Below are positions 56,518-58,146 of a stretch of DNA of 64,000 nucleotides, piece by piece. Both the position numbers and the translations under genes were made by a program. Under the pieces are notes generated by a model. It saw only the letters and a program-made list of their open reading frames with translations, was not told the origin of the DNA and made no database searches. Within the stretch, counting starts at the first letter, position 1, and each line of letters begins with the position of its first letter. Source of the stretch: Solirubrobacter phytolaccae (GTDB taxonomy: Bacteria > Actinomycetota > Thermoleophilia > Solirubrobacterales > Solirubrobacteraceae); assembly GCF_027587195.1 (NCBI RefSeq), contig NZ_JAPDDP010000002.1, positions 1-64,000 of the forward strand. The letters are read 5' to 3'.

Positions 56518-56568
56518 CGTGCGGGAATGATGCCGAGTCGGTCCACCGCCCCCGATAAGTTGGAGGGC

Positions 56569-58146
56569 GTGGAGACCTTCACGCCGTCTGAGCGCGCCCT
56601 GCTTGCCCCCCACTTCTCGAACGTGGACGGGCCGGTGTTCGCGCTCGTCGACCTGCCGGAGACCGTGAAGGCGGCGATGTTCGCCCGCTATTCACGCTAC
56701 CCCGGCACGTTGCGGCGGCTGTTCCTGGACGAGTTCGCGGAGACGCTGCCGGGCGGCGCGGGCGTGGGCGCGGATGTCGAGGGCGCACGGGCGGCGGAGC
56801 TGTTCGAGCGGATCTTCGTCGGCTACGGCGACGACTCGGTGGCGCAGCTGGGCGGCATGCACGTCGCGGTCGAGTGGTGCTCGAACGTGCTGACGAAGGT
56901 GCTGCAGCGGCCGCGGCTGGCCGGGTACCTCGAGCAGTCGACGCGCTACATCGCGTACGACGCGCCGATGCCCGGTGGCGGGTACCGCTACTACCGCGAC
57001 GAGGCGCTCGGGCCCGAGTACGTCGCGTCGATGGACTTCCTCTTCGACGCCTACTCGCGGGCGCTGCCGCAGGTGAGCGCTTGGGTGGACGCGTCGTACC
57101 CCGTCTCGGCCGGTGAGCCGGAGGCCGCGCGCAAGCGGGCCGTGAAGGCCAAGGCGCTGGATCTGCTGCGCGGGCTGCTCCCCGCCGCCTCGCTCTCGCA
57201 CATGGGCATCTACGCGTCCGGCCAGGCGTACGAGCAGCTGATCATGCACCTGCTCGCGCACCCGCTGCCGGAGGCGCGCCTGTGCGGGCAGCGGATGCTG
57301 GAGGCGGTCAAGGCCGTCATCCCGAGCTTCGTCTCGCGCGTGGAGCGCGAGGGCCGCGGCGACGTCTGGATCGGCTACCTGGGCGAGCGCCGCGCCGCGG
57401 AGCAGCGCTGGGTCGAGCGACTCGGGCTGGACCGTGACGAGGCCGCCGAGGAGCGCTCATCCGTGCGGCTCATCCACGTGGATGGCGACGAGAACCAGCT
57501 GCTCGCCGCGCTGCTGTTCGAGGGCGCCGGCGTGCCCGAGGAGCGCACGCTCGCCGCGGTCGCGGACATGACGGACGAGGCGCGGGCGGCGATGCTCGGC
57601 GAGCTCGTCGGTGAGCGCACGAACCGCCGCCACCGGCCGGGCCGTGGCTTCGAGGCGCTGCGCTACCGGTTCGAGATCGTCTCCGACTACGGCGCCTTCC
57701 GCGACCTGCAGCGCCACCGGATGCTCACCGTCCAGTGGCAGTCGCTCACGCCGGACCTCGGCGCCGAGGTGCCGGAGGAGGTCGTCGCGGCCGGCTGTGG
57801 CGACCTGTACGCGGAGGCGCTGGACCGCTCGCGCGCCGAGTACGAGCGCCTGCGCGAAGCCGGGCTGTCCGAAGCCGCGCCGTACGCGCTGTGCCTCGGC
57901 TACCGGATCCGCTACCTGCTGGACCTCAACGCGCGGGAGGCGATGCACCTCACCGAGCTGCGCTCCGCCCGTGAAGGTCACTCCAGCTACCGCGCGGTCG
58001 CCCAGGCGATGCACAGCGCGATCGCCGAGGTCCACCCCGCCGTGGCCGCGACGATGAAGCACGTGGACCACTCGACCGAGCCGCGCCTGGAGCGCATCCT
58101 GGCCGAGATCCGCGGCGAGTCCCGCCGCGAGCCGCTCACCGCGTGA
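56569..58146 (+). CDS. thyX: Tandem-domain FAD-dependent thymidylate synthase-like protein
   Basis: 525 residues from GTG 56569 (VETFTP, matching the usual family start; ATG 56527/56530 would add 13-14). It contains two ThyX-like domains. In the first (about 1-240) the motif reads QRPRLAGYLEQSTRY: R-P-R-x7-S with STRY, so the His of RHR is Pro. In the second (about 330-525) it reads LQRHRMLTVQWQSLTP: intact R-H-R-x7-S but no R-Y after it. Canonical ThyX is about 220-260 residues with RHR-x7-S. The fusion may form one active site from complementary halves. It would make dTMP from dUMP with methylene-THF and FADH2, if active. Confidence 0.82.
   Translation: METFTPSERALLAPHFSNVDGPVFALVDLPETVKAAMFARYSRYPGTLRRLFLDEFAETLPGGAGVGADVEGARAAELFERIFVGYGDDSVAQLGGMHVAVEWCSNVLTKVLQRPRLAGYLEQSTRYIAYDAPMPGGGYRYYRDEALGPEYVASMDFLFDAYSRALPQVSAWVDASYPVSAGEPEAARKRAVKAKALDLLRGLLPAASLSHMGIYASGQAYEQLIMHLLAHPLPEARLCGQRMLEAVKAVIPSFVSRVEREGRGDVWIGYLGERRAAEQRWVERLGLDRDEAAEERSSVRLIHVDGDENQLLAALLFEGAGVPEERTLAAVADMTDEARAAMLGELVGERTNRRHRPGRGFEALRYRFEIVSDYGAFRDLQRHRMLTVQWQSLTPDLGAEVPEEVVAAGCGDLYAEALDRSRAEYERLREAGLSEAAPYALCLGYRIRYLLDLNAREAMHLTELRSAREGHSSYRAVAQAMHSAIAEVHPAVAATMKHVDHSTEPRLERILAEIRGESRREPLTA

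What the first reader, a model, noticed from the sequence alone, without database searches (positions are those of the whole stretch)
56569..58146. Tandem ThyX with complementary half-motifs
The first domain has R-P-R-x7-STRY and the second R-H-R-x7-S without RY. Neither repeats the full canonical motif, yet together they supply it. The protein may form a pseudo-dimer with one type of active site, or be a ThyX paralogue with another reaction. Whether a conventional thyA or thyX exists elsewhere decides.
Basis: partly seen in the sequence, partly recalled or inferred. Interest (0 to 1): 0.6.

Follow-up and report, generated by a model that had tools for sequence, protein, structure and literature searches.

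The report
Two-domain ThyX with split active site
This soil bacterium appears to make its DNA building block dTMP with one long enzyme, two ancient ThyX copies fused together, each of which has kept only its own half of the active site, so that the two halves must work together.

Summary
In detail: one 525-aa protein (56569-58146, +) with two ThyX domains, RPRx7STRY in the first and RHRx7S without RY in the second. It is not chance. Structure papers say a ThyX site needs RHR and a late Arg from one subunit and E-x-S-x-R-Y plus another Arg from a neighbour. In 78 tandem relatives (bacteria, plasmids, phages) domain 2 always keeps the first set (R78, H79, R174 equivalents: 78/78). Domain 1 always keeps the second (S88, R90, R147: 78/78; E86 75; Y91 74). 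Most reciprocal positions have decayed.

The own genome (99% complete) has no ThyA, no other ThyX and no Tdk. Of 298 Actinomycetota genomes, 101 have the tandem form, 114 canonical ThyX, 68 ThyA; none has tandem plus canonical, two have tandem plus ThyA. A phage copy sits beside dCMP deaminase, near dUTPase.

Best reading: a working thymidylate synthase from one ancient fusion, with one live kind of composite site, two per pseudo-tetramer instead of four. The gene is routinely annotated 'FAD-dependent thymidylate synthase'; I found no description of the split site in the open-access library.

The parts
56569..58146 (+). Tandem ThyX gene, 525 aa plus stop (start GTG 56569; in-frame ATG at 56527 or 56530 also possible)
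56569..57423 (+). Domain 1 (about residues 1-285), ThyX fold, gives the dUMP loop half of the site
   Evidence: PF02511 match over this half; separate fold matches ThyX, Z 10.7
56908..56916 (+). R114-P115-R116, decayed RHR of domain 1
   Evidence: H79 position never His in 78 sequences
56932..56949 (+). E122-Q-S124-T-R126-Y127, dUMP-binding loop and lid Tyr of domain 1
   Evidence: 38/38 in close relatives; 75, 78, 78, 74 of 78 in all
57169..57171 (+). R201, equivalent of T. maritima R147 (phosphate)
   Evidence: 78/78
57442..58080 (+). Domain 2 (about residues 292-504), ThyX fold, gives the RHR half of the site
   Evidence: Z 13.2, rmsd 2.5, 193 residues to T. maritima ThyX
57712..57720 (+). 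R382-H383-R384, intact RHR of domain 2
   Evidence: 38/38 each in close relatives; R382 and H383 78/78
57928..57936 (+). N454-A-R456, NAR of domain 2 (FAD contacts in canonical ThyX)
   Evidence: 37 and 38 of 38 in close relatives, not kept in most viral relatives
57961..57963 (+). R465, equivalent of T. maritima R174 (uracil)
   Evidence: 78/78

Best explanation
The gene encodes a working flavin-dependent thymidylate synthase built from two ThyX domains that split the active site between them. Domain 2 plays subunit 'A' of a classical ThyX site: RHR holds FAD and dUMP, and R465 contacts the uracil. Domain 1 plays subunit 'C': the E-x-S-x-R-Y loop and R201 hold the dUMP phosphate and ribose and give the tyrosine lid. 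One chain is a pseudo-dimer; two chains should form the usual ThyX tetramer, with two live sites (domain 2 plus domain 1) and two dead ones. The chemistry should be that of ThyX, dUMP + CH2H4folate + NADPH to dTMP. Shown here: predicted fold of both domains, the residue partition and its conservation, and no other source of dTMP found in the genome. Inferred: quaternary structure, FAD binding, catalysis.
For: Own genome has no ThyA, other ThyX or Tdk, but has DHFR and dTMP kinase. Tandem, canonical ThyX and ThyA nearly exclude each other: 101, 114 and 68 of 298 genomes, overlaps 0 and 2, with swaps inside genera. Residue partition constant in 78 proteins and equal to the subunit partition in M. 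tuberculosis, PolB and PBCV-1 ThyX. Both domains have the ThyX fold in prediction. Purifying selection in both domains. A phage copy beside dCMP deaminase and near dUTPase; a plasmid copy near dcd.
Against: No biochemistry. Fails the NCBIfam thyX equivalog cut-off (50 against 87.9 bits). Third-subunit FAD contacts are mixed: the T55 equivalent is Ser in domain 1, the N163/R165 equivalents lie in domain 2, and H53 is Asp in domain 1. Two genomes of 298 have both the tandem form and ThyA, and one of the order sample, G050, shows the tandem pattern plus ThyA.
Confidence: 0.83

Rival explanations
1. A ThyX paralogue with another reaction (for example a UMP methylase like PolB, or another flavin reaction), with dTMP coming from an unrecognised enzyme.
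For: Divergent, each domain lacks a full motif; below the thyX equivalog cut-off. Some Actinomycetota genomes have neither ThyX nor full ThyA, only weak ThyA-like hits, so unrecognised synthases may exist. An atypical C. glutamicum ThyX is titled 'not required for thymidylate biosynthesis' (PDB 3ge9 title).
Against: It replaces ThyA and canonical ThyX almost one for one; every dUMP contact is conserved in one domain or the other; phage and plasmid copies lie near dUMP-making genes. The own genome gives no PF00303 match at all.
Confidence: 0.1
2. A homotetramer-like enzyme in which both kinds of site work, the degenerate residues being replaced by others.
For: Some non-canonical residues are invariant in close relatives, for example W390, R359, Q219 and D88.
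Against: In domain 2 the S88, R90 and R147 positions vary freely and in domain 1 H79 and R174 are lost in nearly all of 78 sequences.
Confidence: 0.05
3. A decaying or pseudogene duplication.
For: Motif incomplete in each half when read alone.
Against: dN/dS 0.15-0.28 in both domains; one open frame in about a hundred genomes; 78 of 78 at the key positions.
Confidence: 0.01

Closest known systems
Canonical ThyX / FDTS (PF02511, TIGR02170), e.g. T. maritima TM0449 and M. tuberculosis ThyX
   Same: Fold of each domain; all dUMP-contacting residues present when the two domains are taken together; expected role as dTMP source.
   Different: Canonical ThyX is a homotetramer of single-domain chains with four equal sites; here two diverged domains share one chain and neither has the full motif.
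phrog_36506 'thymidylate synthase' and Microcystis phage LMM01 A0A7D4 (491 aa)
   Same: Same two-domain length, matched over the whole model; same residue split in the related MaMV-DH01 protein.
   Different: Only about a quarter identical; the MaMV protein lacks the NAR of domain 2 seen here.
PolB, UMP/dUMP C5-methylase of polyoxin synthesis
   Same: ThyX fold; its two-monomer substrate contacts are the template for the split seen here.
   Different: Single-domain homotetramer working beside a housekeeping ThyX; here the gene is the only ThyX.

Membership tests
ThyX (flavin-dependent thymidylate synthase) | Pfam Thy1 match over the gathering score | tested here: met
   113.5 bits against 24.8, two stretches
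ThyX (flavin-dependent thymidylate synthase) | NCBIfam thyX equivalog cut-off | tested here: not met
   50 bits against 87.9
ThyX (flavin-dependent thymidylate synthase) | Full RHRx7SxRY motif within one domain | tested here: not met
   RPR...STRY in domain 1, RHR...SLTP in domain 2
ThyX (flavin-dependent thymidylate synthase) | All dUMP-contacting residues present in the right subunit roles | tested here: met
   A-role residues in domain 2 and C-role residues in domain 1, 74 to 78 of 78; roles
ThyX (flavin-dependent thymidylate synthase) | ThyX fold | tested here: met
   Predicted models only: domain 2 Z 13.2, domain 1 Z 10.7 with a loose rmsd of 5.6
ThyX (flavin-dependent thymidylate synthase) | Third-subunit FAD contacts (T55, N163, R165 equivalents) in one domain | tested here: inconclusive
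   Split between domains in this lineage, mostly in domain 1 in viral relatives
ThyX (flavin-dependent thymidylate synthase) | FAD binding, tetramer, dTMP formation | not testable with these tools
   needs protein
PolB-type UMP methylase | Extra paralogue beside a housekeeping ThyX | tested here: not met
   Only ThyX in the genome
PolB-type UMP methylase | Methylation of UMP | not testable with these tools
   needs protein

The most novel reading that the evidence does not exclude
An ancient fusion turned the symmetric four-site ThyX tetramer into an obligate two-site pseudo-tetramer with one live and one dead kind of site. This form is the only recognised thymidylate synthase in about a third of sampled Actinomycetota genomes, is also carried by large phages, and has gone undescribed under a routine annotation.
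Probability: 0.6. Interest if true: 0.62.

Novelty: new variant of a known kind. Interest (0 to 1): 0.5.

Why it matters
It is a clean natural example of an enzyme whose active site, shared between identical subunits, was split between two fused and diverged copies. It makes questions testable that are hard in a symmetric ThyX tetramer: which subunit must give which residue, whether sites talk to each other, where folate and NADPH bind. It also shows that many bacteria rest on a form that falls below the usual thyX equivalog cut-off, so automated reconstructions could wrongly call them thymidine auxotrophs.

Tried and rejected
Rejected: that the Ser of domain 2's RHRx7S matters (not conserved). 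Rejected: my first idea that domain 2 alone gives the third-subunit FAD contacts; viral relatives mostly keep those in domain 1, so the point is left open. My notebook entry put a Shine-Dalgarno 5 nt before GTG 56569; the sequence shows GGAGGG only 1 nt before it, so it does not support that start. A single-sequence scan of viral contigs found nothing; the scan with an alignment found 34 loci. phmmer against the PDB with the whole protein was too weak to use. A Pfam scan of neighbours in other genomes failed on coordinates and was not repeated. Chlamydia, whose ThyX I recall as about twice the usual length and which has no thyA (PMC3932018), could not be fetched and was not tested. Ten literature searches found no description of the two-domain form, but most subscription journals are missing. 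Leduc et al. [quoted passage not shown]

Full report
What is there. Window 56569-58146 (+) is one open frame of 525 codons with two Thy1 (PF02511) stretches, 113.5 bits in all against a cut-off of 24.8. It is below the NCBIfam thyX equivalog cut-off, 50 against 87.9 bits. The nearest named relatives are Solirubrobacter, 87-88% identical over the whole protein. Neighbours are a divergent glyoxalase-family gene upstream and DUF4440/SnoaL-like and SNase-like genes downstream; they say nothing about function.

Is it the thymidylate synthase? The own assembly (7.74 Mb, 99.1% complete) has exactly two PF02511 matches, the two halves of this gene, no PF00303 ThyA and no PF00265 thymidine kinase. Dihydrofolate reductase and dTMP kinase are there. 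In 120 genomes of the order 111 have a PF02511 match. Most fall into two kinds: two weak matches in one frame (tandem) or one strong match (canonical). Of the nine without, four have a full-length or nearly full-length ThyA. In the window's genus G097, G098 and G102 show the tandem pattern without ThyA, while G099 and G101 have ThyA and no ThyX. In genus g4 G034 and G035 show the tandem pattern, while G033 and G036 have canonical ThyX plus ThyA. Replacement has thus happened repeatedly.

In 298 genomes of the phylum (sets intersected) 101 have the tandem form, 114 canonical ThyX and 68 full ThyA. Tandem and canonical never coincide (Fisher p 1.7e-28); tandem and ThyA coincide twice (p 7.8e-12). 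The p-values ignore relatedness; the swaps inside genera are the better argument.

How the site is built in known ThyX. The review PMC6514825 gives the M. tuberculosis site: RHR 95-97 and R199 from subunit A; S71 and R190 from B; Q103, S105, R107 and the lid Y108 from C. PolB (PMC5003785) binds the phosphate with R82 and H83 of one monomer and S96', A97', R98' and R166' of its neighbour. The PBCV-1 enzyme shows the same two-monomer split (PMC3498832). In T. maritima numbering, R78, H79 and R174 come from one subunit and E86, S88, R90, Y91 and R147 from the other. The step from PolB R166 to R147 is my own reading by position.

The split in the tandem proteins. I compared 38 close relatives with 40 distant ones (7 from plasmids and phages, 33 from viral contigs; median 24% identity to the window). 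R78, H79 and R174 equivalents are kept in domain 2 in 78, 78 and 78 of 78, and in domain 1 in 35, 0 and 2. S88, R90 and R147 equivalents are kept in domain 1 in 78 of 78 each, E86 in 75 and Y91 in 74; in domain 2 the counts are 4, 1, 2, 1 and 0. In an alignment of 11 proteins, the other ten 21-28% identical to the first, only 24 columns are invariant. Nine of these are E, S, R and Y of E-x-S-x-R-Y and R147 in domain 1, and R, H, R and R174 in domain 2. The viral contigs were found with patterns that include domain 2's RH, so that pair is biased there; the other residues are not.

Fold and history. AlphaFold models the chain with pLDDT 84 and pTM 0.83. Domain 2 matches T. maritima ThyX at Z 13.2, rmsd 2.5, 193 residues. 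Domain 1 folded alone (pLDDT 77) matches M. tuberculosis ThyX at Z 10.7 with a loose rmsd of 5.6 over 203 residues; unrelated rows stop at 5.8. In a tree of 26 tandem proteins cut into domains plus six canonical ones, each kind of domain is one side of a branch (100/96, 100/99, 99/93). One fusion or duplication, older than the split of the bacterial and phage lineages sampled, explains this; long branches make the deep order unsure. Both domains are under purifying selection (dN/dS 0.15-0.28).

Context elsewhere. In the jumbo phage Tunturi_5 the gene follows dCMP deaminase and lies near dUTPase, both of which make dUMP. On the Euzebya plasmid dcd is near, on the Parabacteroides record dihydrofolate reductase. 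These copies are annotated as thymidylate synthase.

Mechanism, and what is inferred. One chain should act as a pseudo-dimer and two chains as the ThyX tetramer. Then two of the four sites are complete and two lack nearly every contact. Not settled: who gives the third-subunit FAD contacts. In this lineage Ser at the T55 position is in domain 1 (38/38), but the N163 and R165 equivalents are in domain 2 (37 and 38 of 38). In the distant, mostly viral, set domain 1 usually has all of these and also keeps H53. FAD binding, oligomer and catalysis were not tested.

Verdict. The protein works like ThyX by all indirect evidence. Strictly it fails two single-chain tests of ThyX membership (equivalog cut-off, complete motif in one domain), so it is best called a two-domain variant. 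The gene is widely annotated and so not new; the split site appears undescribed in the open-access papers searched.

Noticed in passing
L130:3522-6194 and L133:3582-6275 (viral contigs): Frames of 890 and 897 aa: an intein-like insert (starts with Cys, ends HVSGN or HISGN before Ser) interrupts domain 1 of a tandem ThyX within the GHS/SVAEH stretch.
   Followed up: partly
G078, G081, G111 and G334: ThyX matches split in two within frames of 563-688 aa, a pattern that inteins in canonical ThyX would give.
   Followed up: no
families f7, f23, f25, f28, f36, e.g. G134, G156, G157, G299: Some Actinomycetota genomes have no ThyX and only a weak PF00303 hit (E about 1e-8 to 1e-12, model end 110-235), some with in-frame stops: possibly an unrecognised or very divergent thymidylate synthase.
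   Followed up: no
G306 (C1:3843376-3843834), G154, G164, G128, G184, G242: A weak single ThyX-like protein, frames of about 300-450 aa; in G306 it stands beside a tandem copy whose coordinates equal those on the Euzebya pacifica plasmid.
   Followed up: no
L023, L026, L035, L068: Metagenome-assembled records titled 'Bifidobacterium breve' carry a tandem ThyX 63-69% identical to this Solirubrobacter one; the labels look wrong.
   Followed up: no
G272 and G353, G050: Rare genomes with both the tandem form and ThyA; G100 has three PF02511 matches and a partial ThyA-like hit.
   Followed up: no
window 57622-57645 and 57736-57738 (residues 352-359 and 390): NRRHRPGR just before RHR (invariant but for near-invariant H355) and W390 are conserved in close relatives but have no counterpart among the canonical residues considered; they may replace lost FAD or folate contacts.
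   Followed up: no
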